From NCBI GenBank assembly GCA_903813345.2, contig CAIIXF020000011.1, positions 30,248,166 through 30,312,165 of the forward strand: a stretch of DNA of 64,000 bases. Reading direction: 5' to 3'. The DNA is from Owenia fusiformis (Eukaryota > Annelida > Polychaeta > Sabellida > Oweniidae). A program made the position numbers and the translations under genes. Under the pieces are notes generated by a model. The model was not told the DNA's origin. It saw nothing but the letters and a program-made list of their open reading frames with translations, and searched no databases. Positions 34,707-57,509 of this stretch are shown one piece after another (positions within the stretch are counted from its first letter, which is position 1; the number at the start of each line of letters is the position of its first letter).

Positions 34707-34765
34707 CACCCTTGCAGCAAAGGTATATAGCATTTTAGCATCATGAAGTCCTTTGAAAAAGGATG
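34707..34765. mobile_element. 59-bp CATCCTT miniature element
   Basis: It starts CACCCTTGCAGCAAAGG and ends CTTTGAAAAAGGATG. A perfect 9-bp direct repeat, caatgcagt, flanks it at 34698-34706 and 34766-34774. It matches the first unit of 5755-5897. It is remarkably small for an element that carries a full duplication. Confidence 0.8.
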
Positions 34766-35694: not shown

Positions 35695-35914
35695 TAGCCC
35701 AAAAGGTAGTCTTGCTTTAGGTTTTCCAACATTCTCATATTTTTTAACCTTTTTTATCTTTTGAATAATTGATGCTTTGACCCCCCCCCTCCAAAAATTA
35801 AAGTTTGCTTTTTGAGTAAACTTTTGATTGGATTTTTTTTAGTGGCAGAAACCTAGAATATTGAAAAGATGAATATTATACATTTTAGTTGCAGAACCTC
35901 ACAGGATTTTCTAC

Positions 35915-36020
35915 TAGTCTTGCTTCAAGACCCTGGACTCCCCCCCCCTTCTTATCTAATTTACACCAGGTGTTTTGGTGGAAAGTAGATAAGGGGGTCG
36001 ACAGTCTTGAAGCAAGACTA
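35915..36020. mobile_element. TAGTCTTG-family foldback MITE, copy 3
   Basis: The arms start TAGTCTTGCTTCAAGAC on one strand and TAGTCTTGCTTCAAGACT on the other, then C-rich tracts and 'ttatcta'. The tip (CACCAGGTGTTTTGGTG) can fold as well. The perfect 9-bp direct repeat attttctac is at 35906-35914 and 36021-36029. At 106 bp it is nearly a perfect hairpin. Confidence 0.9.
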
Positions 36021-36851
36021 ATTTTCTACATAATAGTAAAAAGCGCCCAAGTAATTCCCCCTCCCCATCCTTCATCAAAGGGCTTCATTCATTTTTCAGT
36101 TCATGTAAACCCCCCCCCCCCCTGCATACCCACAAGCCAATAAACATAAATCACATATAATTATGATTAAGATTTCCTCAATAATGCTACCACAAATATT
36201 TCACATTATATACAGGTATTTAGGAAAATTAACATAACTATAACCCCACCATTGAAATAATGGATTAGCCCTTATCAGGTTATAAAACAATTTGATGCAA
36301 CTAGTAATCTGAATGCTGCCTGGTGGAGTCAGGCATTAAAATATCTTGGAATCTAATATACATATATTGTTTACCATTTACCTGTAGTTCCCATGCATCT
36401 TCTGATGTTGAAGATATTTAGAGATTTGATGGGGTGTGAATGTACATCCTATTGTAAATAAAGCCAACATCCAATGATGTTTGAAATAAGTTTAATAGAA
36501 TGCAAAGATGTTTAAGATTCATATTTAAATTGGAACATATATACATTGATATATGAAGTGTTTGAGATGGTTCTTCAAGTGGATTTAGCATTATTTACTT
36601 TTTGCAATCATGTTTTTGAAGCAGATCACTTTTTTGCTCAAATGAAATTTTGTTTAATGGGGTCAATGAATAGTTCCTAGTCCCAAATATAAAGAGAAGT
36701 GCTCATTTTGAAATATCGCAAGTAAAACGATAAAAATTCACCAACATAAAATAGATTGCACTGTGAACAGTCTCTAGCTCACCAGCCGGCAAATGTTTGT
36801 TATTTATTTACATCTGCCACGTGTTTTTACCCGGCATATATTTAAATAAGA

Positions 36852-36859
36852 TGACGTCA
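36852..36859. promoter_or_regulatory. Palindromic CRE (TGACGTCA)
   Basis: A perfect TGACGTCA lies in 'agatgacgtcacggtcact', about 1.5 kb upstream of the cyclin D start codon. It is the consensus for CREB/ATF factors, and cyclin D promoters in vertebrates carry a CRE near the start site. The distance here is larger, so use in this gene is unproven. Confidence 0.45.
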
Positions 36860-37393
36860 CGGTCACTCCATTTTTCTTTAAGGGAAATGACCGTAGATAA
36901 ATTATTTGAAAGCAAATAAAAATTTTGACATTGTCGGTTTACACGCATTTTAGATATAAAGATATGGAAAAAAATTATATTTTTATTCTATTACTTAAGT
37001 TTTATAGAATTATTAAAGGATAGAATTCGGATTAATATATTCTCACCCCTTCAAAATAGAATCTTCCAATTAAGCTCCGCCCACTTTCTTGATAGATTTT
37101 GAAACAAATATAATTTTGACAGACAAGGATGAGGATCTGGAGCAATCTTCAGTTAAACTTGATGCTTCTGTGGCAAGCTCAATTAAATAGACCACTGTTA
37201 TTTTTTGTTCTTTCTCAATTATATGTGATAACGTATAAGTTCAACTTGACACGTGGAGTATATTATCACATGTGAACACATAGCGAAGGTTTATTGGTTG
37301 AGCCTATGTACCCAAAAGCCAGACGATGAAAGCTAAAAATAGATTCTCCACCCGGCAACATGCGCTTATTGGTTAGAGTGTAGAATTCGAGGA

Positions 37394-37411
37394 ATTTGCA
37401 TAGATTTGCAT
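37394..37411 (+). promoter_or_regulatory. Tandem octamer motif (ATTTGCAT x2)
   Basis: ATTTGCAT occurs at 37394-37401 and again at 37404-37411, exactly one helical turn apart, about 0.9 kb upstream of the cyclin D ATG. ATTTGCAT is the POU/Oct-factor site. Confidence 0.5.
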
Positions 37412-38087
37412 GTACATGATTATGATAATTGTTTACTTGTTGACGATACATGTGAGAACATACATGTATGATGTCAACATTAGTTTACTTACCAGTAAAT
37501 ACTGACCATAGCGACAGCCATTAAACTAAAAAACTTGGATAAGCTTGGAATCCTTGTTCAGTGAACATTCATTTTTTGTTCAGAAAAACAGAAATTCTTA
37601 AGAAGAATATACCAAATTGCATCCCAGGATGCAATCATAATTAAAATGTCCTAATCATCGTAACCTGCTAGATTATGAATTATTAAGTGAATAAAAACCA
37701 ATGTATACATTCGTACATAAAGATATTTATATACACGTATGCATCTCCATGAAACCAAGAATTGGACCGTGAATTCATGTAGTGATGATAACGATGACTT
37801 TGAGCATGAACAGTAATTACAACTCCATGCGAAGCAAATCGCAGGACTATGTCATGTTTGGTGCATCATTCATTATGTCTATGCATTCCTTCAAAACAAA
37901 GGCAATTTTCTCAAAATCGCAATTGTAGATTTTCTCGATTTTTTCATAGCATGTGCTCTAAAACACATTTATTCATTTCGCAATACATTCTCTTGATTAA
38001 TTAGTCTGATTTCGTAATTAATCTAACTTCTTTCCAGCGAGTGTGTGTTGGTAAACGTAAATGCATGTCAATCATTTTTCTGACCCC

Positions 38088-38180
38088 GCCTCCTCCACGT
38101 TGAACCAATCAGCGAGCAGATTGTGAAAAGTCATTCACAAAACTTTTAGGACAGTGAAATAAATATCAGAGCTAACAGGT
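38088..38180 (+). promoter_or_regulatory. Probable cyclin D core promoter
   Basis: A GC/CACC-type stretch (ccgcctcctccacg, 38087-38100) and a CCAAT box (aaccaatcag, CCAAT at 38105-38109) lie 225-240 bp before the start codon. An AT-rich 'aataaatatc' follows near 38158. The transcription start is probably near 38170-38200, leaving a 5' UTR of about 150 bp. The start site is inferred. Confidence 0.5.
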
Positions 38181-38330
38181 TGTTGGGTTAGGAAGTACTG
38201 CGAAATTTATACCAACTAAAACCATCCTAACAACCGAAAGATAGCTTAGATCTACCTCTAAATTATACAAACTCTTGACAAGGAATCGACTAACAGAAAC
38301 AAGGACATAATATAGGAGTAACACACAGAT

Positions 38331-38525
38331 ATGGATTTGTTCTGCGGTGAAGTAGAGATGGAAATGAAACGGGCATTTGAAGACCCTGTTCTTCTCACAG
38401 ACAAAGTTATGACGAACTTATTAGCTCAAGAAGAGCTCTATTTGCCATCACCTAACTATTTCAAATGCTTACAAACAGACATTGAACCATACATGAGGAA
38501 AATGGTAGCTACATGGATGTTGGAG
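38331..38525 (+). CDS. ccnd: Cyclin D exon 1 (residues 1-65)
   Basis: It runs from the ATG to ...ATWMLE, phase 0, with donor GTATGT at 38526. It carries the LxCxE motif and the start of the cyclin box. Reading on past the donor gives a false extension that stops within the intron at about 38597. Confidence 0.96.
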
Positions 38526-41500
38526 GTATGTAAAGTTTCATGTCAAAGTTTTCTTCATCAAAATATGGCCAACAATGGCGATCAGCCAAAGTGTTGAAAG
38601 TTTACAAAGTTTGGCTTATGTTGATATATATATGTAGATCTAACAGCTAAACTAAACTCCAGAATGTGCAAGTTTAACATTTTTGGGTAATATTTGGCCA
38701 CGGTTGTCGAATATTCGCATGGTTTTCACATTTATGGATAATCAAGCTGAAATCTCAACGATGCATTCAAAAATAAGTACAGGACGTAAAATCAAAACTT
38801 TTAAATGTCACTAAAGCCTGGGAAAGCGAATGTTTTATATGTGATCGTATACCATGGTAACAGAGGGCAAAAGGCTAGACTGGGTGTTTTGTTTGAAATA
38901 TTGCTACTTTCTGACACCACTTGCTAGCAACTAAAGTTGAGTGACAACATTTCTCAGTATTTTATAGTTACCAATAACTATTGGCATACCATATGGTCAA
39001 TTTCTTTTCCTAGTCTTTCACTTTGCAATACCATGCTGAAAAGAAAGATATTGTTGCAAAATTGCAAAAACATGTTTTTTATACTGATGAACTGATGAAT
39101 CTATACTAATGAGATACTGTTTCATGTTTTCCAGGTTTGTGAAGAACAAAAATGTGAAGAGGAAGTGTTTCCATTATCAATGAACTATTTAGACAGATTC
39201 TTAAGTGTAGTGAATATTAAGAAGAGTCAGCTACAAATGCTAGGAGCAGCCTGCATGTTCCTTGCAAGTAAACTAAAAGAGACAATTCCACTTACAGCAG
39301 AAAAATTAGTTATATATACAGACAATTCTATCACTTTAGAGGAACTAATTGTAAGTATCAATTGCACTTTAATTGACTTAAACATGGGTTTAACATTCCT
39401 GTTCTTGGTTTTTGAGTGTTGCCCTTTGTGCTTTAGATGGCACAGGTATAGATAAATGAAGTGTCCCAGCTGAAAATGGTCCTATAAAAGATATAAAACC
39501 AGGCCACAGTGATAAAAAATCAAAATGAAAGACATTTTAGTAGAACATCAAGTGCGTCTAATATAGCATTTATCAACAATTTATTAAATATTAAACCATT
39601 CAGAGGTAGTTTGAACTGACCAAAGGAAATGTTGTTAGACCAAATGACCAGGATTTTGGTTTCCCATGGTTAAAAACATGAATGAACTCTGAACTTTGGG
39701 TTTACAACTTCTGGGATGTAGTAGGCTTGCACTGTGTGGATACAGAAATGTCACACCTATGTGGAAAGTACCATTAATAGGTCCTTGAATGAGATACACA
39801 ATGGGAATGATTATCAGAAGGCAATGAAGATCAAGATAACTGAAGCTGTTAATGCATTCATCTCTTTTATCAGTGAACACACATTAGGGTTATCAAAAAT
39901 CACAAGTGGCAACATTGAAAAACAAATGCTAGTTTTAAATATTTAATTTTCTGGCATTTATGCGAATTTCATGTCATGTTATAAATTATTTCATTGTGTA
40001 ATTCAAAGCATAGTTTTCACATGTTCTATTTCGTCTGGCTTTGGAAAGTCACACCATCGCAGACACAGGAAATAGACTTTCATAGCTTCATATTCAAGTA
40101 ATAATCTATCATTACTACTAAACCATTGTTTTCATTAAATTTATGAGGATATCCTTTTTATTGAGTAATTACCAGTTTCCTGTCAATCAGCAATGCATTT
40201 TGTGAACTCAGTACATTTGTGTTTTAAGTATACTTTTCTTATACAGTTAAAAGGGTTATTTTCTTGGAATCATGCAATAGTAAAGAAAATAAGCCAATTT
40301 ACATTTTCAATATGAAGTTGCTGAATTGTATTATGTAATTGTATAGAGAGTTTAATATTACAATGTTAGGGTGGCTATCATGTATGCTGTTAAACCTTTT
40401 GAGTTAGAACTGAATTGGTGAAGCGCTTTTGCGGAGCTTTTGTTCAGTGAACCATGTACCTCTCAGATTCAATTGATAGAATACTTGATATTCATACAGT
40501 GCTGTATACAACACAATTTTATTTATTTGACCTTTATTCTTCATTTAAGTGACTGTTGAGATTCTTGATACAGAATTTGTAATAATGTACCGTTTTCTTG
40601 TTTTTTCAGGAATTTGAACTTCTAGTACTTCAAAGACTAAAATGGGACTTATCTGCTATCACCCCACACGACTTTTTAGAACAAATCCTTACTCGGTTAC
40701 CATTAAGTAAAGAATACCAACACATGATTAAACGACATGCGCAGACCTTCATTGCATTATGTTGCACAGGTAGGTTACCATAGCAACTATTATTATATAA
40801 TTTTGTCTCTATAACGACAAAACATATCTGATATCTTCATTTCGGGGATAGCTTGCCTTGAAACAAATTCACCTGATCTAATAACGCTAGATTCAGCGAA
40901 GACCTCCCCATCAATAGGCTTAATATAGTGCTGAATTGTATATTTGTATATATAAAATTCACTAGGAGTAGTGCAATAGTTCAAGTTACAAGTAAAGAAA
41001 AAAAGATTGGAAATCTTAGACTGATAGTCAACAGTGGGTTTATTGTTAAATCAGATTGAGAAACGTGCCTTTTACCAGTTTATGTACTTTCTAATTCATA
41101 GGAGGAAGGTGTATTTGATCACGGGGCTTAAATGGTCTCTGATTTGACACTAAATTCCTTCACATGTGAAATGATCAATGTTTTACTGAAAGCTTCAAAC
41201 TTATGTTTGTATCAAAGTAGGATATTCATATGTTTTATGTTTTATAAGCAGTAAGTTCAACGTTCTTTACATGAAGAGCACAGTCACTTAAATTTTACAT
41301 GCTCCAAAAATGTTAGTGAATAAAAAGTCTTTATCAAATACCTTAATATGTACGGTGGGTGAACGTTACGCATAACTTTTAGCTATTGTAATTAAAAACA
41401 ATGGGTGTGAAATAACACCAATAATAGGTGGCATGACTAAATAGTATAACGAGCTGAAAATGAGATGTTTTGCATAAGCAAATGGAGAAAATTCTCGGCT

Positions 41501-44500
41501 TATGATACAGAAAAATATTTGAGTAACTTAGCACTTAGGGATTTTGACAGTATTTTAATTCCAAGCTTACAATTCCATAAATATTGACAAGGAATACAAA
41601 CAGCCTCTTGTAGGGGTGTGCGGGGTTGTTTCTCATGGACTTAACATATGCTTATGATGCCCGAGGAATCTTGCACTCTGAAACCTCAATCTACCTGGTA
41701 CAAAAAATATTGAAGTATCTGTATAGTTGGCTGGGGACTGATAATAGGTGTCACTGCAAAATTTTAATTGTAGATTTAGAATTTAAATATTAATTATAAA
41801 TCCCAAAAGCTAGTGGGTGGGTCAAGAATTTATCTAGGAAGCTCTAGAAATAACACTTGCTGCAAAGTCCGATTTGGTTCACTTCAAGAAACACTGTTAA
41901 TGGTATTACACTGAATGATATCAAGTTAACATTCTTATAAAAGTGACCCATTCTTGACCGGGTGAGATTAGCTAGATCGCATATTTAAACTGAACACAGT
42001 CATGTATGAACCAACCACATTTAGCACAGTTAAAATCAAAAACTTTGACTTGTTTTTGAACCAACAGCTCTGCAGCATATTGGCTCACAAAGACGACACT
42101 GACACTGTTTTTACATCACTACATCGTATCATTTATACACTGATTTACCAATAATATTTTTTGTTCAATGTCCAATTTTGCTATCTGGTGAAACCTATAA
42201 AATCACCAATACTCTCTGCTTATGCCCGCCCCAAAGGCATAATTATTCTCTGTACCATTGGTTATCTCATATTCACTTGTCCGTACTGTTCCTTTTCTTG
42301 TTGGATCATTATATAAGTGTTTGACAATATGGGTAACAGTTGTGTATGTAATATTATCACTGATAACCAAACTTCTCCATTCAGCGTTGAATTCTTGGCT
42401 TCCTATCCAAGATAAAATAATAACACCGCCTAAATGAAAATATTTAACAATATCTACACAATTAGATAACCTTGTTCTTTGACAAAAGGCTTTATTTCCA
42501 GTTCAAAGTGGTCATGTTTGCGATAGAAAATTTTCAATGAATCTAGGCCTTGATTTAATAATATGTACGTCTACTTGGTGAAAATTGTTTTGCATGTTTT
42601 CAATAGGTTCAACTCAATATTGGGACAACCATTGATAGCGATTGTTGGAACCACTTCTCAGCATTTGATCCTGATAATACCAAAGAGCAGAATTTAGCAT
42701 GTACCAACATCACCAAATTCCTTCGATTCATATCGTTATGTAATTCTCTATGTGAAAGTAGATGGGTATAACTCCGCTCTTTGTATTATTGTTAGCAAGC
42801 ACTTTACTTGCCATAATCTCACTTGCTTATAAATCTTTATTAAAATTTTCCAAAATGCAAAATGTTACAGGAATAATTCGACTCACATTCTTGGAGTGAT
42901 CTTAGCGTAATCGAACTCTTTGAGAGATTAAACTATTTAGCTAGGATTACTGCATTGAGAACGTTTATGAATGCAGAGGAAAGAATTTCAGTGAGTGTTA
43001 TCACCGCAGGGCTCAATTCTTATGCTAATAGTTCATAGAATAATGATAACACCCCTTGTGTTCTATATGGACAAGTCAGCTCAAGCATTTTGGGCAAGCT
43101 TATATCATTCTGAAGGGATGGTAAGATGTCTGTTGGGGACCCTGCATTGGGCTAACCCCTAAGGTGACTGAACTGAAATACATCCATGAAATCCTACCTC
43201 CAAACAATTGGAGTAATTCTTGATTTAGCGAACAAAATCCAATGGTCAAAGCATTGACTGACTTGTGTTTTTCTTGTGATCAAAGGGTTTTTAAATTATA
43301 AAGTGTGTTTTGTTTGGGTCATCTGTCTTTCCAGTTGAAACCTAATATGATGTGTAAATATTTTCTACTTGGTCTGGTTTACTTGCCTTGGTCACTGTGT
43401 GTGTGTTTCCAAGGGAGCCTGTATATCTTCAGGCCTTGTATTCAAACAACAAAGTAAATGTCCCTTGATTGAATCGGATTGAGCTTTTGAAAGTTTTTTT
43501 TTATGTTCAGATTTTATGTGTGGTGGTAGCATTGTGCTGAAAACTTTAGAGTTTTGTGGTTCACCACAAATATTATTTAAGTAGAATTTTGTTGCTCATT
43601 AATAGAGCTGTGGACTTAACTTGTTCCAAAATTTATTTTATTTTGATGATTGGCTTACATTTCCTTTTTGTGCGATTTCATTCTGTTTAGATTTGAGCAC
43701 TGTAAGATTCATATACATACATCCACGTATGCATGAATATGGATTGAAATCGATCATGATGACAGTAATTTGTTCGCCAATTTGTATGTTAATCATACTC
43801 AAGCCATTACAATTTGAAGAGAGGGCAAAGGGAAATTGTTCATAAATTAATGGTCATTTTGCCGCAATAGACAATTTTCAAATGCAATAAGATGAATGTA
43901 AAACTTTGCTTCATTGGCATAATTTCATCAAATTGGTTATTTGTTGCTTCGTCCCTGTTTTGTGTCATATTTGCAAGGTATTGGCTGAAAATGATCTCCA
44001 TCTCAGTAAGCTGCCAAAAGTTGAATAAGACCAAAAACGTGAACCTGGTGGTCCAAAATAACGAAAACATGTCACACATTTGACCTCATTTTGTTACAAT
44101 GAGCCAAATTGAATTGCAACGTATCTTCTGTCTATTATTTGGGCACACTCCTTTACTATGGCTGCATTTGGTCACGATGCTTCAACCTTGGATTAATAAT
44201 TTCTAAAATATATTTGATTTATGTGATAACCCTCCAAGTTCAGTGATTATAAGGTTACATTTCGGCAGGTGTTGTCTGGAGGTAACGACTATGTAATGTT
44301 AATTCTCCCGGCACACGACTCGCTCATGCCAAATCCTCTCTTACATTTTCATTAGATTATCCATGATTGATAATCAGGTAATATATGTGCAAACAAAGAC
44401 AGGTGGGATTGGGGATAAGGTAGGTACCTGTACTTATCAAACACACCTGCTGGACTTACATACGTACTTAAACATATACATATTCATGGCCAAAAAAATG

Positions 44501-47500
44501 ATCTTGATAAGTTGGTCTTGAAGCAGGTGAAAAAATGGACATCAAAGTGTGTCTACACCTAAACTTATCCTTATATGGGATATAAAAAATGCATGGTTTG
44601 TGACGGGACACATTGTAACATGTTAACATCAATGTGTCTGTGGTATGTTAATTCATACAAATTTAGCATCATGGAGTTTTTTTTATAATAGGTAAGCACA
44701 CGCAATTTGTAAAGGATAAGCTGTACTTACCCTTTAACAAGACAGCTGTATGCAAATCACACATCACTTACCTGAGATACCTGTGAAGATCGCTCCTCTG
44801 GCGTGTGCCATGCACAATCCTATTATACAGATTCAGGGCCAGATTACATCCCATTGTTAATCATAATGGATTTTTAATAACAACTTCCTGAAAATTAAAT
44901 TTTTGTAATTTTGGGTACATATACATAACTTGGGGCAGTTTGGGATATGTTGAGGCCCCTACTGCTGTATACTTACTTATCTTGTTGTTCAAAGGAACAG
45001 GTGCAATAGCAGTAAAAATTAACCTTGTATTTATTGGTAAGATAAATATCTAAATATGTAAAGAAAATGAATTAATTTTCAAAGGATGAATGAAGCAAAT
45101 GAAGTAGATTTTCAGTAGTTTTTGCGTACTTATTTTTACTTTTCAAATTTAATCAGGAATTTTGGATGATTGATTCAAAAGAGCCATACTTGACAAAAGT
45201 GAAAAAGTGAATGAAACATCGGGATCAGAGGTCAGGATGGTTCAGCCGTTGACTACCCATAAAACAGAAAAATATATTGTTATTCCAACAAAAGAACTGT
45301 TAAAGATACAACCACTTTCAGTACTTAAAATTAGGTGAACTATAAAACCTGTTCTATCAAATGATTTTCAAAGTGATTTTCAAACCCTCACTGTTAGATA
45401 TCTATATATTAAAAATGAACACATTCCATTTAAGATTAGTTTCCACATTTTGTGATTGTCTGGTACGTTTGGCATTGGTAAGTTCAGTCTTTTCAACAGG
45501 TGGTCTTTATTTTAAAAAACTGCCTTTGTTTTTGAGGAGCAGATGTAGTATGTTTTATAGCCTCTGTAATAAGATAAGTATGTAAGGCAGGAATGTGTAC
45601 TATAATATAAGTTAAGAAGCCCCCCTGCTTGAACAGTCAACTTCTTGATTCTTTGGGTTTCACTTTTCATTCATATCCTGAATCGAGTGCATGTTTTCTT
45701 TATGATTTCTTAAATTTAGTATTTTATTCATTGTTGCATGAGGCACCGCACCATGTGGATTATTTGTCCATTTGAAACATTCATCAATAAAAGTAATATA
45801 CCACTTTGGAATTTTATTCTTGAGAGTTGTTGGGTCATTTATGGAGTAGTGCTTGGTGGTCTGCTTCGACAGGAAATGGAGTCTGTTGGCAGAAGGGTTA
45901 CTAGTTCAGGGTTGTGCCATAGCCTACATAATCTTAGAATGATAGAATATTTCTGCCTCTTGTTGAAATTAAGCTGTGTCAGGGACCAAGTATTTTAAGC
46001 TACCTTTTCCAATTAATATTTTCATGTGAATTTGCAATAACAGTAACAATTCTAATTATTTGTTTTTGGTCTTTTGAAATATAAACTCCATTAATCTAAT
46101 GAAAATATGATTAATACTCAATAACTAATACTTGCTGAAAATATTGACATTTTTATATACTGTATGCCTTTAAACCAATATATTTTTAATGGTTTGAAAG
46201 TTGTGCCTGAGAAATTTCAATGTGTGAGAATTTTTTCTATTTTCAATGTTTGACATCTCAAATGAAACCTAAGCCAGCGAAATTGGATGAAAGTTAAGTG
46301 AATGCAAATTTAGTTGAGCATACTTAAAGTGCTTGATAAATGGAGAAAAATCAAGCATATCATAGTTTCAGTGGTTTTATATTTCATTTGAGAAGGGATT
46401 TATCATCAACAAATACTTATAATAAGTCAATGTTAATTTCAGAAAAATTAACCATTTTAGGATTAGCAGGGTTTGAGAGTTTAAAAATAGCATAATCGAT
46501 TTTAACAAAGCATTTGATGCATTGAATAAAATTAAGTCAAATCATAAGTACACAGTTTGATAGTTTTACTAACATGAAATAGTTTTCTCAGATTTAGTTG
46601 GTCAGGTTTAAGTTGATTGAAGCATCTTATCTGGTCTTGTCAAGGACTATAGTCCAACAGATTATTTTGTCCACTCTGTGTGCTCAACCTAAGTACCTGC
46701 AGACGGCAAAATTATGATGTCACGATTCTTGGACATTTCTCAGAAATATTCCAAGGAAGTGTATTATTTTATTCAACATGTTAGCACCCTTGACCTGAGA
46801 TTATATCCAAGAGATAACAATTTCAAGTTTCATCAAGTCGTTTGTATAAATTCGCAATGACAAAATCTCATTTTTGAGAATTGTTTTGAATTCGTAAGGG
46901 CGGGGGTTTGTTGAAGATCACAAACACGCAAGGCCATTACTATGTACTAAAACTCTTCATATCAACTAACCTTCTTGAAAGAATGTAGACAATACATTTC
47001 TGATAGTTTAACATCCTACATATTTTCGACCGAACACTTGGTCGGGATGTTCAAATTGGAGTTTTATAAAGAGAGCATGCTAATTTACAATATCATAAAG
47101 ATAACCAAGTTATTGACTAAAATAAAAGTCAAGCTAGCTATTGAATTTTGAGTTGCATATAACCCAAACTGTGTCTTTTGAAAAGGGTATTGTTGATCTA
47201 GTTCAAAATCATGGTTATCACATGGGTCATCTAGATATCAATGGTACCCCTCTGTTGACTTATTGCATTTTTATCACATTTAAACTTGATCATCTCTGAT
47301 AATGTTAACATATCCCATATCAACGAGATTTCAGGATAGCAATGAAGGGTAGATATTTCTGGAATTTGTTACATACCATCCATTTTCAAAATTGGAATTT
47401 TTGTGTTTTTCAGATTTCAAATTTGCTATGAACCCACCATCAATGATCGCAGCAGGAAGTGTCGGGGCAGCAGTGCATGGCCTTCTGGGACAGGATTGGA

Positions 47501-50500
47501 TAGAGTTGAACGATCTAATGACCCTGTTACATAGGATCACTGAAATAGACACAGTAAGTCCTACATTTCTCTATAGTCTTTCTGAAATATATAAACAAGT
47601 TTGGAGGGGTATAATGTTGATTTTAGCCACATTTTCTTGAATGTCTGGTGATATTGAAGATAATTAAAGAAGACATGTTATGTTTAAAGCTGCTTCAAAT
47701 ATTTAATGTTTTGGTATAGATGTTGACATAGATTGTTGATGTTCACCACCCTTGTCCTATACTCTGTCCAAATACACCTGTCTTGGCCATCTCAAGAAGA
47801 GATAAGTTTAAAACTTTTTTTTCTACTTTTCTTTGTGTTAGAGAACCTGCCATGTGTGGTGAAATCTGAAACATTTACAAATAAAAAAGTCACAGAACTC
47901 TAACATTCCACAGTTGGTGGCTAGGTCAGACAGTTTGCAAAAAAAAACTTTAAAAATGGGCCAATGTTTTTTCACCAGCCCCTAGCTCTTAAGTAGGATA
48001 TAAAAAAAACTTTTATTCAGGAACCAAGATAAACATTTGAAAGCACCTTGATCCTTTGGAAGATACTTTAATTGAATTGCATTTCCTGTCAATTTAATCA
48101 TCAGACCCTTCATAAAGGGAGGATGAGACTTATGAATTTTCATTCAAATTGGACCTTTGTATTGAAAAGTCGAGCACATATATATATATGTACTGTGCAT
48201 ATAAGCCCAACTAATAAATATTATAAATAGTTAAGTTATTTTACCACATGATGTCTAATTTGGGAGACTCCTTCATTTCATTTTCACAGTAACAACCTCA
48301 AAAATAGTTTTTGATTATCTAGATCGCAACAAGTTGTTCACATTTTATTTATAATTTGCTCAAGGTTTAAGTACTTTTTGGGATATACCTGATTATAGGT
48401 GGTCTACCTGGAGTGATTGCCTAACATGTGATAAGTAATGAAATACCTGAAAATACCTGAAAATCATCATACCAACTGACTTAAAGGATCAGTGTATTTG
48501 AAACTATGTGAAAAATCTGAAACTGATGAAAAATTCAGTATTAAGTATACATATATGATAAGTGGGACTGATGCAAAAAATGAAAATCTGTTGCTATGTG
48601 CACTGTTTCTTTTCCCGCTTGTTGCTTGAGATATGGAAACCAGAGTACCATTTGGTAGAAATTATCTCTTACATTATCTCCCTAAATATTTAACTCCTAG
48701 TGGGAGAACGTTCTTACTTACCAGAGAGAGTTCTGCGCACCAGGAGTATCCTCCTGTGTTGTTAAAAAAATATTTAGAAGAAGTGAAGAAGTGTTATTCC
48801 TCACTTGGGAGTGAGGGTTCAGGTGACCTGTTAATACAACTGCACAGGGGTCATCCATTGACATACCATGGTAAACCATTAGAAGTATTCACCCTATGGG
48901 TGGCCAGAAGTGTTTTACTAGAACCAGATATTCTGCCAACTATCCCATGGGAGAAAGTAAAACATTTGGTGACCATGGTGATCAGGCCCTATGTCAAGTT
49001 ATTTGGACTGTAAAACAATCCTGATAACCTTTCACACTTCTCCCACCACCTTGCCCTTCCAATCACTTTGAACACTTCCTGAAGTTTGTCTGTTTTTTCC
49101 AACAAGTGTCCATGAAGATTGAGTAGTCTCCATGGCAACCTTGGATCTACTCTCCATTTGTGGGTATTTAATCACAGGAACAGTTGTTGTATGCACACTT
49201 ACAGAGCATTCCTTGACTGCAAGACATTCACAATTTAGTTCACAATATAAAGTTACAGCAGATAGAAGATAAAGACTACCACTTCCTCTGGTCACTCTCT
49301 GGTTACCATAGCAACATACTTATTAACATCTTGAGCCAGGTTCAATATTGAGACAAGGGTATCATACTTTAGAAGATAATTAGTTTTAATCTGTTATTTA
49401 TTTGTCTTGATAGCCACCTTGGGTATCTGGTTGGGTTACCATAGTAACTAGAACAAAGTCCTTGGTTACCATGCATAGAACTTGGTAAATGATCATATAT
49501 TTTGCAAAGTATCATTGACTAGTCAATATATTTTACTTATGGTTGACATTAAAATACCACTGGCTGTGTTGGGAAGGATGGAGCCTTCTTATCTCAGCTA
49601 CATTTTCTGTCATCAAGATACCACCACTGAAACACCATGCTAAACATGTGATCTTATGATGTAATTGTTTATTACACATTTTTTTGTTGTTATCTCAGGC
49701 CAGACTTCCTCTCTATGGATTTGTATTACTGAAAATAAATAATAAATGCAAAGACATCATGAGGTGTATGGGATTGGTACAATTAATTATGCACTATGTT
49801 CACATGATTACAAGTGTAGATTGATAAGCTTGCTTTGTATTATTAGAAAGTGCACATATTTTGAATGAAATATTTGTGCATGCAATTCACTGGGAAAATG
49901 AGTTTAATGGGCAAAGATATGTATTTTGTTGAAAGCTATTGAACAAGTTTTGGCTTAGATTTAGACATACCTTTGGTTCTTAGTGATATAACTACTTTAT
50001 GTGCAACAATTTATTTTTGTGACTCAACTTGAAAGTATTTGATATAAACAGTAGATCTAAGTATATGGTTTTGAGTTCATATTTCTGATAAATTTAGGTA
50101 TAGTGTGACCTTTTCAGTTTGTTCTTTCATCATCTTATATCAACATAATCACCGGAAGTTCACATGGATGGATATGTATCTCAGGGTATTGGCTAGCGTT
50201 GGGAGGGGGTATTATGAGGGGTTGAATATAGAAAAACATAAATCAATCTGTTCTAAACATTCCATGAATTCAAAATATAATTTTTTTGTCCATCAATCTT
50301 TTTTGACAATTTTGCAACGGTGTGGGGCAATATTGTATCCCCTAAATTTAAGCTTTTGAGCACCTGTAACGACCTGTTCATGTGAAATTACCTGTAACGA
50401 GATATGAAAATTAATATTATATAATCTCAAAGGTAAGACAAAATGTCTCCATTTTATGCATGTTTTGAGCTCATTTTATGTAATGGTGCAGTTTGTACTG

Positions 50501-52489
50501 CTATATGCTTAATGGGGTGTTAACAAATATTTGAACATTGTTACCCATTCTCTCTACATCGGTTTGAATTCTATTTCTAAGATTATAAACTTGATTTTGT
50601 AATATTATTCTCTAAAACAAAGTTGAGACATTGACTTACAGATTTGGGTTGAATTTGTTTTAATATTTACCAAATTAAGCCTCAAAAGTTCACACTTGAA
50701 TATGCAGCTCTACTTATTTGGAATTCTTTAAGTAAATTGAACCATACTAGCTGAATTGAAATCAGTAAAAGGTGGTATTTTATCACATCTATAGCTGTTT
50801 GACCACATCCCAACTGCACTTGAATACATACATGCACCTATCCACACTTCGATTATGTTGGTATGTATGCTCAAACATCTAAATAGGTTTTAGTTAACTG
50901 ACATGCGTTTGACCCTCTCTAGTCCCAGTGAGACTTTCTCTATCTAAAAATTCTGGATATTACATATGAATTTGTCTCCTTACCAGAATTTTGATTGCAA
51001 TATAATGGTCACAATTTTGATAACTCCTTTTATGACCTGATAAGTTTCTTTGATATTTGTAACTTTACTAAATTGATTTAACCTCAGCTGTAGTATAAGA
51101 GGAAGCTTTGTGAATTGTACAATAATTAATAGGCTGACAATATTTGGGGAAATTTCAAAACTGTTGGTGGTATGATTTTTATTTATCAACAATGATATAT
51201 TTTAGTAGTTGTTGAAAGGATGTAGTATATTTTCAGTGTTATACAATTCTAGACTAAACCACAAGCACATTTGCAATTAATCAGCAAAACATTACCCTTT
51301 CCCTGACCCTCAAGCCTTAAAATTGGAAAAGGCAATTTCGGAAAATGACTGGTGTTCTGTTTTTTCCTCATAGTCATGAGGTTGTTCATGGGATATGGCC
51401 ACGGAGAAATGAAAATGAGAGTCATAAACGACTGCCATATTATCACCAACATCTGTGTAGTGTCCTCTGATATCAGTCCGCTATCTGTGTTTATCACTAG
51501 TCTGTCATTCACAACAATTTCATTAGTGGTTCTCACAATTTTCCAACATTTTTCCACCATTAACCCCCTGACTACCAATGTCTTTTCAGCATTGTGTATG
51601 TCAAGTAAGTTTGCTGGATCAGATATCAAAGGGTTAAAATTCCTGAGTTGAGGCTCATGAAACCTAAGTTTCTTTGTCTGGTGTTGTCCTGTACAAGATT
51701 TCAAAACTTGCTTCTTGTGTCCCATTTTCTCTGGGACCTGTATAACATAAATGCCCATAACCATAAAAAATGACAACTCCAACCATATTGTACTCGTCAT
51801 GGTAATTCCTCTAGCGTTAACTTTGGGGAAAAGCATGACCATTTTGTATTTTCTACAGGGAAATCCTGTGTTATTACACCATATGAGTGTACCATTAAAT
51901 CTCCCTAAGGCCCATTTCTGTGATTTCACTACCTTATTCTTCCATTCACAAGATTGACTGCCTCTTCTGCAGGGTTTCTAGAGAAAGCAACAGGTTTCAG
52001 TTTTATCTAACATATTACTACTTCCTGAGTTAAATAGTTCATTACAAATTGTGGACTTTTTGCATCTGAACCAGATATCAAGGCTTGATTTTATACTGAG
52101 TTCCATGTTGGAATTCCAGGTTTTGTGGTTCACTTAGTGTTTGTTAAATATGGTGCACCCTAACCAGCTTATAAACAATCAGAAGCAGGTGTACCAATAA
52201 TTAAAGTAGAATATCCCATTTTTCTACAAACAATAAAGTAACTGCTGCAACTTTGTTATTTAGTTCTTGTTTTAAAATGCATGTCATGGACTTCATACAA
52301 TTTTATGTTGCTGATATTAATGTTGCTGCCTTTGTGTATTTTCAGGATTGTCTGAGAGCTTGTCAGGAACAGATAGAACAGGCATTGGCTACCAACCTAC
52401 CTCAAGCTGCCCCTTCTAACATGCAGAAACACTCAGCACAGTCAGAACAACCCACAACTCCTACAGATGTTCGAGATATTCACTATTAG
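38331..52489 (+). CDS. ccnd: G1/S-specific cyclin D (five coding exons)
   Basis: This is the regulatory subunit of CDK4/6, which phosphorylates retinoblastoma protein in the nucleus to allow S-phase entry. The coding exons are 38331-38525, 39135-39350, 40610-40769, 47414-47553 and 52346-52489, 855 nt in total, encoding 284 residues (human paralogs about 289-295). Residues 3-7 are LFCGE, the LxCxE Rb-binding motif. The N-terminal cyclin fold covers roughly residues 20-150, with [20 protein letters not shown] at the expected place and [15 protein letters not shown] holding K111, equivalent to human D1 K112 needed for CDK binding. The second fold covers about 155-237 ([19 protein letters not shown]). 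The tail ends [11 protein letters not shown]275 matches human T286, the GSK3 site that drives export and degradation. All junctions are GT-AG, and the exon layout matches vertebrate D cyclins. The ATG is the first in frame and gives the usual MDL start. Confidence 0.97.
38526..39134 (+). other. Cyclin D intron 1
   Basis: 609 bp with GT...AG borders and no genes. 'accatggtaac' at 38851-38861 is a partial X-box-like palindrome. Confidence 0.85.
39135..39350 (+). CDS. ccnd: Cyclin D exon 2 (residues 66-137)
   Basis: The acceptor is 'gttttccag' before 39135 and the donor GTAAGT is at 39351; both boundaries are phase 0. It encodes [14 protein letters not shown] through [11 protein letters not shown], the heart of the first cyclin fold and the CDK-contact helices. 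It is the most conserved part of the protein. Confidence 0.97.
39351..40609 (+). other. Cyclin D intron 2
   Basis: 1259 bp with GT...AG borders. Short frames at 39635-39946 on both strands have no motifs. No repeats or RNA genes are seen. Confidence 0.8.
40610..40769 (+). CDS. ccnd: Cyclin D exon 3 (residues 138-190 plus one base)
   Basis: The acceptor is 'ttgttttttcag' before 40610 and the donor GTAGGT is at 40770. It encodes [20 protein letters not shown] through TFIALCCT, linking the two cyclin folds. It ends one base into a codon (phase 1), which exon 4 completes as Asp. Confidence 0.96.
40770..47413 (+). other. Cyclin D intron 3
   Basis: 6644 bp with GT...AG borders. The first perfect X-box lies four bases past the donor. 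Short open frames, the longest about 86 codons at 45738-45998, have no recognised domain. Apart from the X-box no clear repeat was recognised, which contrasts with the region upstream of the gene. Confidence 0.75.
40774..40787. promoter_or_regulatory. RFX X-box motif in intron 3
   Basis: GTTACCATAGCAAC fits the RFX consensus GTNRCC-N(0-3)-RGYAAC exactly. It sits four bases inside intron 3, beside the 5' splice site. Confidence 0.6.
47414..47553 (+). CDS. ccnd: Cyclin D exon 4 (residues 191-237)
   Basis: The acceptor is 'gtgtttttcag' before 47414 and the donor GTAAGT is at 47554. It starts by completing a codon (G|AT, Asp) and encodes [17 protein letters not shown] to RITEIDT, helices of the second cyclin fold. 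It ends in phase 0. Confidence 0.96.
48633..49013 (+). CDS. Unrecognised 126-residue coding segment inside cyclin D intron 4
   Basis: I do not recognise this protein. The frame is balanced in amino-acid use and less AT-rich than its surroundings. It starts [20 protein letters not shown] and ends [14 protein letters not shown]. It looks soluble and largely helical, with no signal peptide or membrane segment. Two readings are possible. The ATG has a good context (G at -3, G at +4) with a stop two codons upstream, which would make it a single-exon nested gene. Alternatively, a strong polypyrimidine tract and AG at 48629-48630 make 48631 a splice acceptor that enters in phase 1, the same phase as exon 4, so it could be the last exon of another transcript or an alternative cyclin D 3' exon. 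AATAAA at 49734-49739 could end the transcript. Confidence 0.55.
   Translation: METRVPFGRNYLLHYLPKYLTPSGRTFLLTRESSAHQEYPPVLLKKYLEEVKKCYSSLGSEGSGDLLIQLHRGHPLTYHGKPLEVFTLWVARSVLLEPDILPTIPWEKVKHLVTMVIRPYVKLFGL
49302..49315. promoter_or_regulatory. RFX X-box motif in intron 4
   Basis: GTTACCATAGCAAC is identical to the site at 40774, but the surrounding sequence differs. A right half-site (ccatggcaacc) lies at 49130-49140. Confidence 0.6.
49435..49448. promoter_or_regulatory. RFX X-box motif in intron 4, second
   Basis: GTTACCATAGTAAC differs from the perfect site by one base. A left half-site, GGTTACCATGC, follows at 49464-49474. Confidence 0.5.
49734..49739 (+). terminator. Possible poly(A) signal for the intron-4 coding segment
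   Basis: AATAAA, closely followed by a second AATAAA at 49738-49743, lies about 720 bp after the stop codon at 49013. It is the nearest clear signal I saw downstream, but AATAAA is common by chance in DNA this AT-rich. Confidence 0.3.
51249..51929 (-). other. 226-codon open frame of unknown nature, antisense in intron 4
   Basis: This is the longest open frame in the window. The translation ([14 protein letters not shown]... to ...[12 protein letters not shown]) shows no domain I recognise and no signal peptide. A length of 226 codons is unusual but not impossible by chance in 64 kb of this composition. It could be a decayed gene or transposon fragment, or chance. An ATG-initiated + strand frame (51352-51651) covers part of the same stretch and may be a shadow. 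Confidence 0.25.
52346..52489 (+). CDS. ccnd: Cyclin D exon 5 (residues 238-284 and stop)
   Basis: The acceptor is 'tgtgtattttcag' before 52346. It encodes [14 protein letters not shown], a low-complexity Ser/Gln/Pro linker and the [10 protein letters not shown] degron, then TAG at 52487-52489. Upstream text in the same frame is intron. Confidence 0.97.
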   Translation, partial: DCLRACQEQIEQALATNLPQAAPSNMQKHSAQSEQPTTPTDVRDIHY

Positions 52490-52671
52490 CTTCGCTCGAC
52501 CAATCAGCAGTCAGATAAAGTCTTTCCAATGCCGTAATATCAAACAAATCTAATCACCGCCAGAGATGATGAACTTTTGCGACATTCATCTAATTTACCA
52601 AATTGATATACCTCAGCTTATCTTAGCACTACCAGGGACCAATCAGAATTCAGAATTTCAGCCATTTTGTT

Positions 52672-52685
52672 GTTACCATAGCAAC
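52672..52685. promoter_or_regulatory. RFX X-box motif downstream of the cyclin D stop
   Basis: GTTACCATAGCAAC is the third identical copy, 183 bp after the stop codon. CCAAT (accaatcag) lies about 33 bp upstream of it. Confidence 0.6.
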
Positions 52686-53655
52686 ATGCCGTCTGCTCAC
52701 AAATGATTGACACTTATCCTCATTCTGACGAATGTTTGACTGATTTGTTAGGGGTGCGAAATTATAGTACAACAAGATGCTTATGTAAATAAAAAAGTTG
52801 TGTATGTAAAATTAATAATCTTAATGACCAGCGTATTTCATCATTATATCTCAATAACTTTGGTTTGAGACTTTGAGAAAAATGGTGGATCGTTGAATGT
52901 GTAAATAGATCCAGGCTGAGCATGTCAAAGGTTTGAAGGAGGATCAGCAGCATGAACATAATGAATTGGGAGCAAATCTGAAATCTAGTGTATATAAAAC
53001 TTTATATGACAATTATTAATAATATTATTTACAGTTTTATGTGTTAGACTAGGGCGGTCCCTAGGTGTAATGTATTAATTGTATAGGGCGCTAATGAAAT
53101 CTATGTTTAGAGCATAGTAGTTAAAATCTCATGCATAGTATTCATTATTTAGTTAGGTGTTCACTTAGATGTGTTCAGTCACCTACAGTGTTCTCTCAGT
53201 GCCTCCTTATTGGACAATATCATTTTATGATCTTGAAGAATGTGGGGAACTGAACATGCTTTTAGCTAGTAGTAGAAACTGGTTCATGAAAACACTGGTG
53301 CTGAATCAGTATTAGCTAGATGTCATCTTTATAGCTTACATGTATAATGTAGACATATCTGTGTTGGTGTTGTATTCATTCAACAATAGTGTCTTCATGA
53401 ATCTGGAAAAATGGAGGGAAAGGTGATTATTGTCATAATTGCAGTAGGGGAAGGAGGGAAATAACCTCCCTTGCATGCACTGCCAAATTTTGCTACATGT
53501 AATATATGTAGCAGCATTAACTTGTGTAATTATCCACAATTGATCAATTGAAACATCTCAAGTTTTGAAAGGTACAAATCGCAGTACACCTTCAACTAAC
53601 GAGCTCTCAGTGATAAAGTTTGTAGATGATTCAAGTGTAGTCAGTGTGGACTAAT

Positions 53656-53671
53656 GGTTACCACGGTAACC
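53656..53671. promoter_or_regulatory. Palindromic X-box-like site
   Basis: GGTTACCACGGTAACC is a near-perfect palindrome with X-box half-sites facing each other (GTTACC and GGTAAC). Confidence 0.5.
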
Positions 53672-54641
53672 ACATAAGTAGTCAACCCGCATAAGTATAA
53701 AACCTACTGTAAAAATGACAAAAAAACTATAAAACAAAAATATCTCAATATGAGAAAATAATGCCAGTCAGCGACCAGAGACTTGCTATATGGCATTATT
53801 GTTTATTGCAGTAAAAAAATATGTGCTTGTTTTTTATTATTCTATTTTCTCTTTCCAAAATGGCTACCAGTTTGAGAGTAACTAATAGTAACATTCGAGC
53901 TGAACATTTTTTATATTTTTATGGAGACAGCAGTGTTACTCGTTTAGTTCTTACCGGTGACTTGACCTTTATGAGGGGTGCGAATAATACCCTCATCTGC
54001 CAAATAAAAGAGTTGTAATGCAGTTCAGACTGGTTGCCATTTTGGTATTTAATTGGCACAAACTTTGGTTGTAGATGTGAACCTGGGACTAGGTGTTGTC
54101 TCGAGTGAAAGTCCTGCAGTATATTTAACGAATGTCGTCGTTTTTCTTTACTCAAGTTATCACCTAGTTTCGGGGTGTTTAATACAGCCCCCTTTCAATC
54201 TAAGCGTGATGTTCGCTATTTGAAAAAATTAATTGTGTGTGTTTAAAATGTATTACAAGTACTAGAGATACAATGCTTATTTGTGACAACGTACTAGTTT
54301 TCTGTGACATCATATTTACCACTTGAAATACTCACCTCAAACTGCCTTATGTAATATTTCATATAATAATTTTGTAATTTTAATACATTTTTACTATAGA
54401 GGTCTAAATTTTAATCATATCTGATTTCAAGCAAGATAAGTATATAATTGAATGTACAAATCAAATTTGAGACAATGCAACTTACAAATGTCAAAATAGT
54501 GTATGATTTTGGATGTTTTGCCTTCTTAGACTTGTAGCTCTTTTTGTGTTTTTATAGAAAGCTTAATTTTGCATTTAAGTGTATTTTTGTGGACTATCTC
54601 AAGAAAATGGGTAAGGTAACTATGCAACAAGTAGTTCCAAG

Positions 54642-54655
54642 GTAACCATGGCAAC
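54642..54655. promoter_or_regulatory. RFX X-box motif, most distal
   Basis: GTAACCATGGCAAC fits the consensus. A related GGTAACTATGCAAC lies just upstream at 54615-54628, so two sites sit within 41 bp. Confidence 0.5.
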
Positions 54656-54842: not shown

Positions 54843-57509
54843 CTGCCAGTGCTTGATATATTAAAAGTATATTCATTTTCGTTACTTGTATGATATATTG
54901 TGATGTGATATTGGTTTACAAAGTTCTTGTTAGATAGTCCACATTGGTCGCTTTTGTTCAGATTTATTAACCCTTTAACTAGCAGTATTATAATTAAAGG
55001 TGCTACACTAGAAACAAAGGGTTAATTAAGTTTGGAACATACCACAGTTTCACTGTGTTTCTTTTCGTCCAACTTTTTTGAAAATTTGATTTTCAGAATT
55101 TGAAAATAATTGTAACCTCACAGTGGAACCTTTTCTGATTTTATAATTTTAATATTTTTTAAGTTAGAATATGCAACAAAAGATCTAAGTGGCTTATTTT
55201 TTCATATGATATATTATGGAATGGGTTGAAAGGAAAAAATAGAAGATGTAATGAGAGAGAGATGTGAAATGGGGAAACCCATATATAATGAACGAGCATT
55301 GTACAAATTTTGAAACAGTTTGCAGTATATTTGTAAGAAAGAATAAACATTTTAAAAACATAAATCCTACAAAGTTTGTTGAATTTGTGTGTTCTATCTA
55401 GGTGAAGGAGAATTGAAAGGCAATTCAACTCGAGGAACCACTTAAAATGTTCAAAATTTCTAGAATGATATATTTATACGTGTACAACCTGATAACAGAT
55501 CCCCCATTTTATGCCCATCCTCATTTATCTAAGCTGTACCCCATGCCCACACAGTAGCTCAGTAAACCTTCCAAATCTCTAAGCACAAGACATAAAAGGG
55601 AAGTATCAAAAACTGTAAAGAAACCTCGCAAGAAATGTAAACCTGTCATAAGAAAATAATGACATGACCAAGAGTGAGTTCACCCCAACCACTAGTCTTG
55701 CACCAAACTTGTACCAATCGTGTGATCATTTTATTCTCAACATGGATGGATGGAAGGCTTCAGTATATCCTCACCTAAATTCTCATAATTTGCCAAATTA
55801 TGAAAAAAACGTTCTAGTTGATCAATAGGAATATAAACATTAATAATGCACAAAAAAGCACATTTCTGAATAAATTGAAATCGTCCAAAAATTAAAGAGA
55901 CAGATATTGTGACGGGGGGGGGGGGCTTTAGAGATAAGGGAAAAGACTCCCAAAACTAAAAGGATTATGAATTATGGTACCTCATATATTGTAAAAGTGC
56001 AGATCTTTTGTATCAACAATTTATTAAAAATACAATGAGGAAATCTTAGAAAACATGAAGAGGTTGAAAAATAAGGTACAAAAATCATAAAGGTCATCTA
56101 GAAAAAAAACTGTATAGTTTGTACAGTATGTGACCTGTATTACAAATGTTTTGATGGCTATCAGCCACATATAAAGTAATGTAGTTCAAGTCAAATTTTC
56201 ATATGTATTATATATCTAAAATAAAGTATATTACTTCTCATTGAAAAGTATTGAAAAAATAATCTTATCTCAAAATCATCACTTCTGAAGTTCTATACTG
56301 AAAATGATAATTTCATTTAAAAATCTATTTATACTTGTTTTTTTACCCTTGACTACATTACCACAGCTTAGGGGATATTAATTTGATAAATTGACCTTGA
56401 ACTCTTTTTATCAAATGGTTTCAAGGATATAGTTCGAATATTTTTTTGCTCAATCACTGCGCTCACTCATGAAAGTATCAGTATCAAATCATGGATATAA
56501 ATGATATCTTTTCAAAACCATAGAATATTCCTATAATACCCTGATTGCCAGAGTCTAGTACTGTAGACCGAGCATTTATTGAAAATGGTGAGCTTTTTCT
56601 CAGAATTGTACCATTCACAAAAGCTGTAAGTTTCCCCTGATGTTATTTGAGAAAACAGATGTAAAACAAGTACACTACCACTATAATGTTTGGAAACAAT
56701 TTTTTTGTGTTTCCAAACTTTTGAAGGGAGTGTAACTCACAAAGGAGAATTGACATTCAACATGTTCAATATAGTCAAAGTATGAAAGTACTAACTTTGA
56801 ACATACATGTATTTAAACATAATTATATGCCGTGGCCTATTGTAAGAAGTAAAACAGAAAACTGGACAGCACAAATATCAAAACAACTTTGAAATAAACA
56901 TGCTCTTTATGAGAAAATAATTCACACAATTAATTTTAAAATTGGACTGCACACATCAGTTCACCAAATATTTGCCAAAACTGTATAGAGTCAAATGAAA
57001 CTGAGAAGATAAGTGAGAGATTACCCTTTAAAAATATTTGTTAATTATAACACCTGGAATACGAAATCATAAAAATCGTTAAAAATGAAATGTAGCATGA
57101 CATCAATATTTATCAACAAAACAAATGTGTATGTTTTTGGGAGTTATTTTACTTCAAATGTAAATATGTTTTTCAAGGGAAGATAGTGTTTGACCAAATG
57201 TATGGTGACCACATTCCATAATGGTGGGAACAATGCAAGCTTTCCCATCCCATCTCTCTTTGCTCCGAACCAGCTCTCCATCTCATCCATCAATGGCTAA
57301 AGGATCAATAAAGGATTCTGGGACTGAACTTTCTTTGGTGTGTGAAACTTAACCTGTGTCCAGTAAATGACTGAAAACATTAGGGTCAGGACCTTAGTGT
57401 TATTGGATAGCAATATAGGAGACCTAATCTGTGAAATTGGACATGCTGATTCCATCTCTTTTCTCTGAGATAATACAATCTTGAACAAGAAGGAGTCGTG
57501 TAGTCACAT
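54843..57509. other. Non-coding, AT-rich stretch
   Basis: No gene is supported. A G run lies near 55915. The 89-codon minus frame at 55159-55428 has no recognised domain. Confidence 0.45.

What the first reader, a model, noticed from the sequence alone, without database searches (positions are those of the whole stretch)
40774..54655. Cluster of RFX X-box motifs across the 3' half of the cyclin D gene
GTTACCATAGCAAC occurs identically three times (40774, 49302, 52672). Close matches are at 49435, 53656, 54615 and 54642, and half-sites at 38851, 49130 and 49464. The flanks differ, so this is not one spreading repeat. A 14-bp consensus of this stringency is expected well under once in 64 kb. 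The X-box is the known binding site of RFX factors, which control ciliary genes. The pattern suggests RFX control of a G1 cyclin, or a palindromic RNA element in intron or 3' UTR.
Basis: partly seen in the sequence, partly recalled or inferred. Interest (0 to 1): 0.7.

Follow-up and report, generated by a model that had tools for sequence, protein, structure and literature searches.

The report
RFX binding-site cluster in cyclin D
The body and 3' end of an animal cyclin D gene carry a cluster of sites that match the RFX transcription-factor consensus, which fits the published finding that human cyclin D1 and D2 are direct RFX7 targets, but whether the sites are special to this gene could not be tested because no genome of this animal was available.

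Summary
GTTACCATAGCAAC occurs three times (40774, 49302, 52672). A published strict RFX consensus, RTNRCC-N(1-3)-RGYAAC, occurs at six places in the window against 0.6-0.8 expected; all six lie between 40774 and 54655, in or just after the cyclin D gene, with a spacer of exactly 2. Flanks show no long shared repeat. The gene has five coding exons, 38331-52489. Sites lie in intron 3 (from base +5), in intron 4 (four sites or half-sites in about 350 bp), in the 3' UTR, and 1.2-2.2 kb past the stop; no strict site lies upstream of the gene. RNA folding does not support a hairpin; Fox co-motifs typical of ciliary targets are not enriched. Human CCND1 and CCND2 are reported direct RFX7 targets, and the authors propose ancestral control (PMC9981735, passages). 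Best reading: RFX-dimer sites in gene-body and 3' elements of cyclin D, an RFX-to-G1 link rather than a ciliary one; the RFX7-type site itself is not enriched. Binding, function, conservation and genome-wide density are untested; general X-box richness of this animal's genes is the main rival.

The parts
38331..38525 (+). cyclin D coding exon 1 (ATG at 38331)
   Evidence: joined exons give an 855-nt open frame with GT/AG introns; Pfam Cyclin_N and Cyclin_C; best PDB match cyclin D1, E 7.5e-98 (the queries were a hand-typed join with 3 surplus residues at exon 1/2)
39135..39350 (+). cyclin D coding exon 2
40610..40769 (+). cyclin D coding exon 3
47414..47553 (+). cyclin D coding exon 4
52346..52489 (+). 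cyclin D coding exon 5 with stop
40774..40787 (+). X-box GTTACCATAGCAAC, intron 3 bases +5 to +18, directly behind the 5' splice site
49126..49139 (+). near X-box GTCTCCATGGCAAC, intron 4 (one mismatch to GTNRCCNNRGYAAC)
49302..49315 (+). X-box GTTACCATAGCAAC, intron 4
49435..49448 (+). X-box GTTACCATAGTAAC, intron 4
49465..49472 (+). X-box half-site GTTACCAT, intron 4
52672..52685 (+). X-box GTTACCATAGCAAC in the 3' UTR, starting 183 bases after the stop codon
   Evidence: first AATAAA after the stop at 52788
52637..52646 (+). GACCAATCAG, NF-Y-type CCAAT box 25 bases before the 3' UTR X-box; a second copy at 52498-52507
53657..53670 (.). X-box GTTACCACGGTAAC (matches on both strands), long 3' UTR or 3' flank
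54642..54655 (+). X-box GTAACCATGGCAAC, 3' flank; weak partner GGTAACTATGCAAC at 54615
43382..43395 (-). weak X-box GTGACCAAGGCAAG, intron 3 (one mismatch to GTNRCCNNRGYAAC)
38848..38861 (+). partial X-box TATACCATGGTAAC, intron 1 (right half-site intact)

Best explanation
The repeated motif is a set of binding sites for RFX-family transcription factors (X-boxes) in gene-body and 3' regulatory elements of an animal cyclin D gene: a dense module in intron 4 (49126-49472), single sites in intron 3 and in the 3' UTR beside a CCAAT box, and sites 1.2-2.2 kb past the stop. RFX dimers bind the palindromes and, acting as intronic and downstream enhancer elements on the cyclin D promoter, raise or tune cyclin D transcription and so entry into G1/S. 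Shown here: the sites, their excess, their fixed spacing, their restriction to this gene and its 3' flank within the window, and the gene model. Inferred: RFX binding, enhancer action, and the sign of the effect (activation, by analogy with CCND2, reported as bound by RFX7 and lowered on RFX7 loss in human cells). The palindromic form fits the type reported for most RFX proteins better than the RFX5/7 type, whose reported site is CCTAGCAACA.
For: Published strict consensus RTNRCC-N1-3-RGYAAC (PMC2375033, passages): 6 places, all at 40774-54655, expected 0.6-0.8. Human RFX1 consensus GTNRCC-N0-3-RGYAAC (quoted in PMC3414849, passages): searched with spacer 2 and up to one mismatch, 14 strand-matches against 2.9 expected, 0 of 100 shuffles; by start these are 8 places, all inside 40774-54655. 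Spacer control: of spacers 0 to 12 only spacer 2 is filled (6 places), plus one place at spacer 8, as a fixed protein-dimer site predicts. Six uniform points within a 13.9-kb span have P about 0.002. Flanks show no long shared repeat. CCND2 is reported as a direct RFX7 target by ChIP-seq and knock-out in human U2OS cells, CCND1 as one from the same group's earlier work, and the authors suggest that the ancestral gene was already controlled (PMC9981735, passages).
Against: No binding or expression data. No genome of this species, so background density in other genes is unknown. Human functional X-boxes lie mostly within 500 bp of the start site (PMC5838959, passages), and the human RFX7 targets were called within 5 kb of the start (PMC9981735, passages); here the nearest full site is about 2.4 kb after the ATG and no strict site lies in the promoter region. 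The RFX5/7-type site CCTAGCAACA is not enriched (6 one-mismatch places, 3.2 expected, 11 of 100 shuffles reach it), so the link to RFX7 itself is weak. CCAAT lies within 100 bases of only 2 of 10 sites and half-sites, no excess. The looser Drosophila consensus is not enriched. All five orientation-informative strict sites have RGYAAC on the + strand (two-sided sign P 0.06, counted), which a symmetric dimer site does not require. A study of 25 regulatory segments conserved across bilaterians does not mention cyclin or CCND in its main text (PMC10735318, term search). The test was prompted by the motif seen in this same window, so all P values are after the fact.
Confidence: 0.5

Rival explanations
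1. Species background: this animal's transcribed regions in general are rich in X-box-like palindromes, so the cyclin D cluster is ordinary and has no gene-specific role.
For: Only one gene was recognised in the window, so gene versus intergenic cannot be told apart; no genome is held. In Drosophila the loosest consensus hits 50,000 places, and X-box presence upstream of a gene does not by itself predict RFX dependence (PMC2375033, passages). The looser consensus is not enriched here.
Against: The strict consensus has 6 of 6 places in about a quarter of the window and none in the other 47.7 kb.
Confidence: 0.28
2. The sites serve other transcripts: a nested gene (ORF 48633-49013, intron 4), or a promoter in the cyclin D 3' UTR (two GACCAATCAG boxes, a GCCATTTTG YY1-like core and an X-box within 190 bases) that drives an antisense or downstream RNA.
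For: The intron-4 sites lie 113-459 bases after the nested ORF; the 3' UTR element groups 52498, 52637, 52661 and 52672.
Against: The ORF has no Pfam family, no PDB relative (best E 1.2) and no confident fold (mean pLDDT 40, single sequence); its X-boxes lie after, not before it. CCAATCAG (7, 1.3 expected) and GCCATTTTG (6, 0.4 expected) are frequent in the whole window, not only here. No transcript data. The YY1 naming is recalled.
Confidence: 0.12
3. Dispersed repeat: the X-boxes were carried in by a short mobile element whose remaining sequence has decayed.
For: Dispersed and tandem repeats are common in the window. Shared stretches reach somewhat beyond the motif: 25 columns at 92% for 40774 and 49302, 28 columns at 82% for 49126 and 54642 in opposite orientation; a 50-column, 78% match (E 1.4e-4) links sequence 43 bases after the 53657 site with 56873-56921.
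Against: Best identity of 20-base flanks between any two of 10 sites and half-sites is 9 of 20 on the left and 12 of 20 on the right. Spacing is kept while flanks are not.
Confidence: 0.07
4. Sense-strand RNA element in introns and 3' UTR.
For: GTTACCAT is on the + strand at 7 of 8 places in the window; 5 of 5 orientation-informative strict sites are on +.
Against: Six folded stretches have z-scores of -0.76 to 0.09; no Rfam family at gathering threshold in the window; a dyad with no loop is a DNA-type site (inference).
Confidence: 0.03

Closest known systems
RFX X-box, GTNRCC-N0-3-RGYAAC (RFX1-type, palindromic)
   Same: Six sites match fully, all with spacer 2 and five of six with central AT
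   Different: Known functional human sites are mostly close to the transcription start (PMC5838959, passages); here several are spread over introns and the 3' end
RFX7 control of human CCND1 and CCND2 (PMC9981735, passages)
   Same: Same gene family, RFX-type motif
   Different: RFX5/7 are reported to bind CCTAGCAACA, often near CCAAT boxes (PMC11344851, passages); here near-palindromic sites, mostly without CCAAT
RFX1 acting on MYC through an intron 1 X-box (passage and reference title in PMC8106159)
   Same: Intronic X-box in a proliferation gene
   Different: Human MYC, reported as repression; several sites at cyclin D here
Ciliary RFX/FOX target promoters (Drosophila fd3F/Rfx, PMC3414849, passages)
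   Same: X-box
   Different: No Fox motif excess (2 Fox motifs near 1 of 7 sites, 0.6 expected per site); not near a promoter

Membership tests
RFX X-box binding site | Match to GTNRCC-N0-3-RGYAAC / RTNRCC-N1-3-RGYAAC | tested here: met
   6 places
RFX X-box binding site | Fixed short spacer between half-sites | tested here: met
   6 places at spacer 2; 0 at spacers 0, 1, 3-7 and 9-12; 1 at spacer 8
RFX X-box binding site | Bound by an RFX protein | not testable with these tools
   needs EMSA or ChIP
Classical promoter X-box | Within about 500 bp of the transcription start | tested here: not met
   no strict site upstream of the gene; three hits of the loosest consensus in 33331-38525; first full site at 40774. 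Caveat: the start site is not mapped, and an internal start cannot be excluded
Ciliary RFX/FOX module | Fox motif within about 50 bp | tested here: not met
   1 of 7 sites
RFX5/7-type element | CCTAGCAACA half-site type | tested here: not met
   no exact copy; 6 with one mismatch against 3.2 expected; two of these six lie in the 49302 and 52672 sites
RFX5/7-type element | Nearby CCAAT box | tested here: inconclusive
   2 of 10 sites or half-sites have CCAAT within 100 bases, one of them (52672) a full GACCAATCAG
Conserved cyclin D regulatory element | Sites present in cyclin D genes of related species | not testable with these tools
   by their descriptions the searchable collections hold prokaryotes, phages, plasmids and viral contigs, and metagenome scans were capped at 0
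Cyclin D | Cyclin N and C domains, closest to D-type cyclins | tested here: met

The most novel reading that the evidence does not exclude
RFX control of cyclin D is older than the vertebrate D1/D2/D3 duplications, and in this animal it runs through an array of dimeric X-boxes in introns and 3' flank rather than through a promoter site: RFX factors, known mainly for cilia, would be ancestral regulators of G1 entry.
Probability: 0.25. Interest if true: 0.65.

Novelty: new member of a known kind. Interest (0 to 1): 0.42.

Why it matters
RFX7 is a reported p53 effector and tumour suppressor that directly targets CCND1 and CCND2 in human cells, and its authors proposed that the ancestral gene was already under this control (PMC9981735, passages). 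A cluster of RFX sites in the cyclin D gene of another animal makes that proposal testable by comparing cyclin D loci across animals, and would tie a factor family known for cilia to the G1 switch.

Tried and rejected
Palindromic RNA hairpin: rejected on folding z-scores and no Rfam match at gathering threshold. Ciliary RFX/FOX module: Fox motifs not enriched. Spreading repeat within the window: no long shared flank, though short extensions exist. RFX5/7-specific element: CCTAGCAACA not enriched. NF-Y association in general: only 52672 has a full GACCAATCAG partner; the 25-base gap between that box and the X-box resembles the X-to-Y spacing of MHC class II promoters as I recall it; I did not check this and give it no weight. 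Promoter X-box: only three loosest-consensus hits in 33331-38525. Identity of the nested ORF 48633-49013: no family, no relative, poor model; no fold search was run on that model. Ten other long ORFs: no family above its Pfam cut-off; three weak matches below it. The bacterial promoter scan at 52400-52900 has no bearing on an animal gene. Literature: ten searches of an open-access library, with papers listed of papers found: 13 of 13, 5 of 5, 12 of 74, 6 of 10,501, 9 of 9, 12 of 22, 4 of 4, 10 of 21, 8 of 108, 2 of 2. None of the listed titles and abstract starts describes RFX sites in an invertebrate cyclin D gene; papers beyond those lists and supplements were not seen. None of the four papers holding one of six X-box 14-mers concerns cyclin D by title.
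Full report
What is there. GTTACCATAGCAAC is present exactly at 40774, 49302 and 52672. Using consensus sequences taken from papers instead of the motif itself, RTNRCC-N1-3-RGYAAC (the least degenerate of those used for Drosophila targets, PMC2375033, passages) gives six places: 40774, 49302, 49435, 52672, 53657 and 54642. The human RFX1 consensus GTNRCC-N0-3-RGYAAC (quoted in PMC3414849, passages), searched with spacer 2 and one mismatch allowed, adds 49126 and 43382.

Is it more than chance. Expected number of places for the strict consensus is 0.6-0.8 in 64 kb; none of 450 random sequences of Markov order 1, 3 or 5 reached six. Of 3000 patterns made by permuting letters within each half, eight reached six in the window and none reached six in 38331-54655; of 720 mirrored permutations three (the real one included) reached six in the window and only the real one in that interval (the interval ends at the last site). 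Of 630 palindromes with the composition of GTTGCCATGGCAAC, the X-box alone had five places at up to two mismatches and eight at up to three; it has none at up to one. With half-sites held fixed and the spacer varied from 0 to 12, all six places are at spacer 2 and only one other place exists, at spacer 8; this is the most telling internal control. Against this: the looser GYTRYYN1-3RRHRAC is not enriched (8 places, about 6 expected; 42, 36 and 35 of 150 random sequences at orders 1, 3 and 5 reach it), the exact motif with three mismatches allowed is only mildly so (14 strand-matches, 5.8 expected, 1 of 100 shuffles), the count of GTTACCATGGTAAC at three mismatches was reached by 13 of 630 palindromes (itself included), and everything is after the fact because the motif was noticed in this window first.

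Gene context. Joining 38331-38525, 39135-39350, 40610-40769, 47414-47553 and 52346-52489 gives an 855-base frame for a 284-residue protein with GT/AG introns. It matches Cyclin_N and Cyclin_C and is closest to cyclin D1 and D3 in the PDB (these two calls used a hand join with three surplus residues). The window is therefore very likely from an animal (inference); the species is not known, and no genome is held. The first X-box begins at base +5 of intron 3. Intron 4 holds 49126, 49302, 49435 and the half-site 49465 within about 350 bases. 52672 lies in the 3' UTR, before the first AATAAA at 52788; 53657 lies before the next AATAAA at 54003, and 54642 lies beyond it, before an ATTAAA at 54673. 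The likely promoter region, with a CCAATCAG at 38105, has no strict X-box; three loosest-consensus hits lie in 33331-38525.

One repeat or many sites. The best identity of 20-base flanks between any two of ten sites and half-sites is 9 of 20 on the left and 12 of 20 on the right. Shared stretches that include the motif are 16 bases (49302 and 52672), 25 columns at 92% (40774 and 49302) and 28 columns at 82% (49126 and 54642, opposite orientation). Nearby sequence, not the motif, also matches elsewhere: 53713-53762 with 56873-56921 (78%, E 1.4e-4) and a few shorter pieces. So no long repeat carries the sites inside the window; a genome-wide repeat cannot be excluded.

DNA or RNA. Six stretches around the sites fold no better than shuffles (z -0.76 to 0.09), and no Rfam family reaches its gathering threshold in the window. 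The + strand bias (5 of 5 informative strict sites; GTTACCAT at 7 of 8 places) is the only point for an RNA reading and is weak.

Which RFX. RFX5 and RFX7 are reported to bind a non-palindromic CCTAGCAACA, often near CCAAT boxes, whereas most RFX proteins bind the palindrome (PMC11344851, passages). Here CCTAGCAACA has no exact copy and is not enriched with one mismatch. Two of ten sites or half-sites have CCAAT within 100 bases. The 3' UTR site does have a full GACCAATCAG 25 bases upstream, and a second copy follows the stop codon; this small element could also be a promoter for another transcript, though CCAATCAG is frequent in the window as a whole (7 places, 1.3 expected). Fox motifs, the mark of ciliary RFX/FOX targets in Drosophila (PMC3414849, passages), occur near one of seven sites. 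Animals have RFX1/2/3, RFX4/6/8 and RFX5/7 sub-families, inferred to predate animals (PMC10530576, passages), so candidates for each type should exist in this animal (inference).

What is known. CCND2 is a reported direct RFX7 target in human cells (ChIP-seq within 5 kb of the start, and lowered in knock-outs), CCND1 is one from earlier work of the same group, and the authors suggest that the ancestral gene was under RFX7 or its ancestor (PMC9981735, passages). RFX1 is reported to act on MYC through an intron 1 X-box (passage and reference title, PMC8106159). Human functional X-boxes are mostly near start sites, distal ones being the exception (PMC5838959, passages). A study of 25 regulatory segments conserved across bilaterians does not mention cyclin or CCND in its main text (PMC10735318, term search). 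The cluster is thus a new instance of a known site type at a gene already linked to RFX in humans, with an unusual placement. Ten open-access searches, several with capped lists, showed no paper on RFX sites in an invertebrate cyclin D gene (counts in Tried and rejected).

Verdict. The motif is an X-box by sequence and the cluster is real in this window. RFX control of cyclin D is the most likely reading (0.5), with general X-box richness of this genome's genes as the main rival (0.28). Binding, effect, conservation and genomic background are the missing tests.

Noticed in passing
48633-49013 +: A complete 126-aa ORF inside cyclin D intron 4, followed by X-boxes and by AATAAA-containing sequence near 49735; no Pfam family, no PDB relative, single-sequence AlphaFold model of mean pLDDT 40. 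Possibly a nested gene or retrocopy.
   Followed up: partly
51249-51929 -: The longest ORF listed in the window (226 aa) lies antisense in intron 4; no Pfam family.
   Followed up: partly
52490-52690: The start of the cyclin D 3' UTR groups two GACCAATCAG boxes (52498, 52637), a GCCATTTTG (52661) and an X-box (52672), looking like a small promoter or enhancer.
   Followed up: partly
38041-38331: Likely cyclin D promoter and 5' UTR: a CCCGCC stretch and CCAATCAG at 38105; CCTAACAACC at 38226, two changes from the RFX5/7-type half-site.
   Followed up: no
whole window: CCAATCAG (7 against 1.3 expected) and GCCATTTTG (6 against 0.4 expected) are over-represented in the whole window, for reasons not looked into.
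   Followed up: no
62222-63652: Satellite-like array of a 46-base unit with longer periods of 138 and 377 bases.
   Followed up: no
8211-8937: Tandem array of a 162-base unit, 4.5 copies, 99% matches; one frame is open for about 53 codons in each copy with a stop between copies.
   Followed up: no
several places in the window: Dispersed repeat family with a core, joined by eye from overlapping k-mers, of GAATGGTGAAAAACTGCATGATTTTGAAAGAATTTTTGGC; its 14-mers occur 3-6 times. Poly-C/poly-G tracts are also frequent.
   Followed up: no
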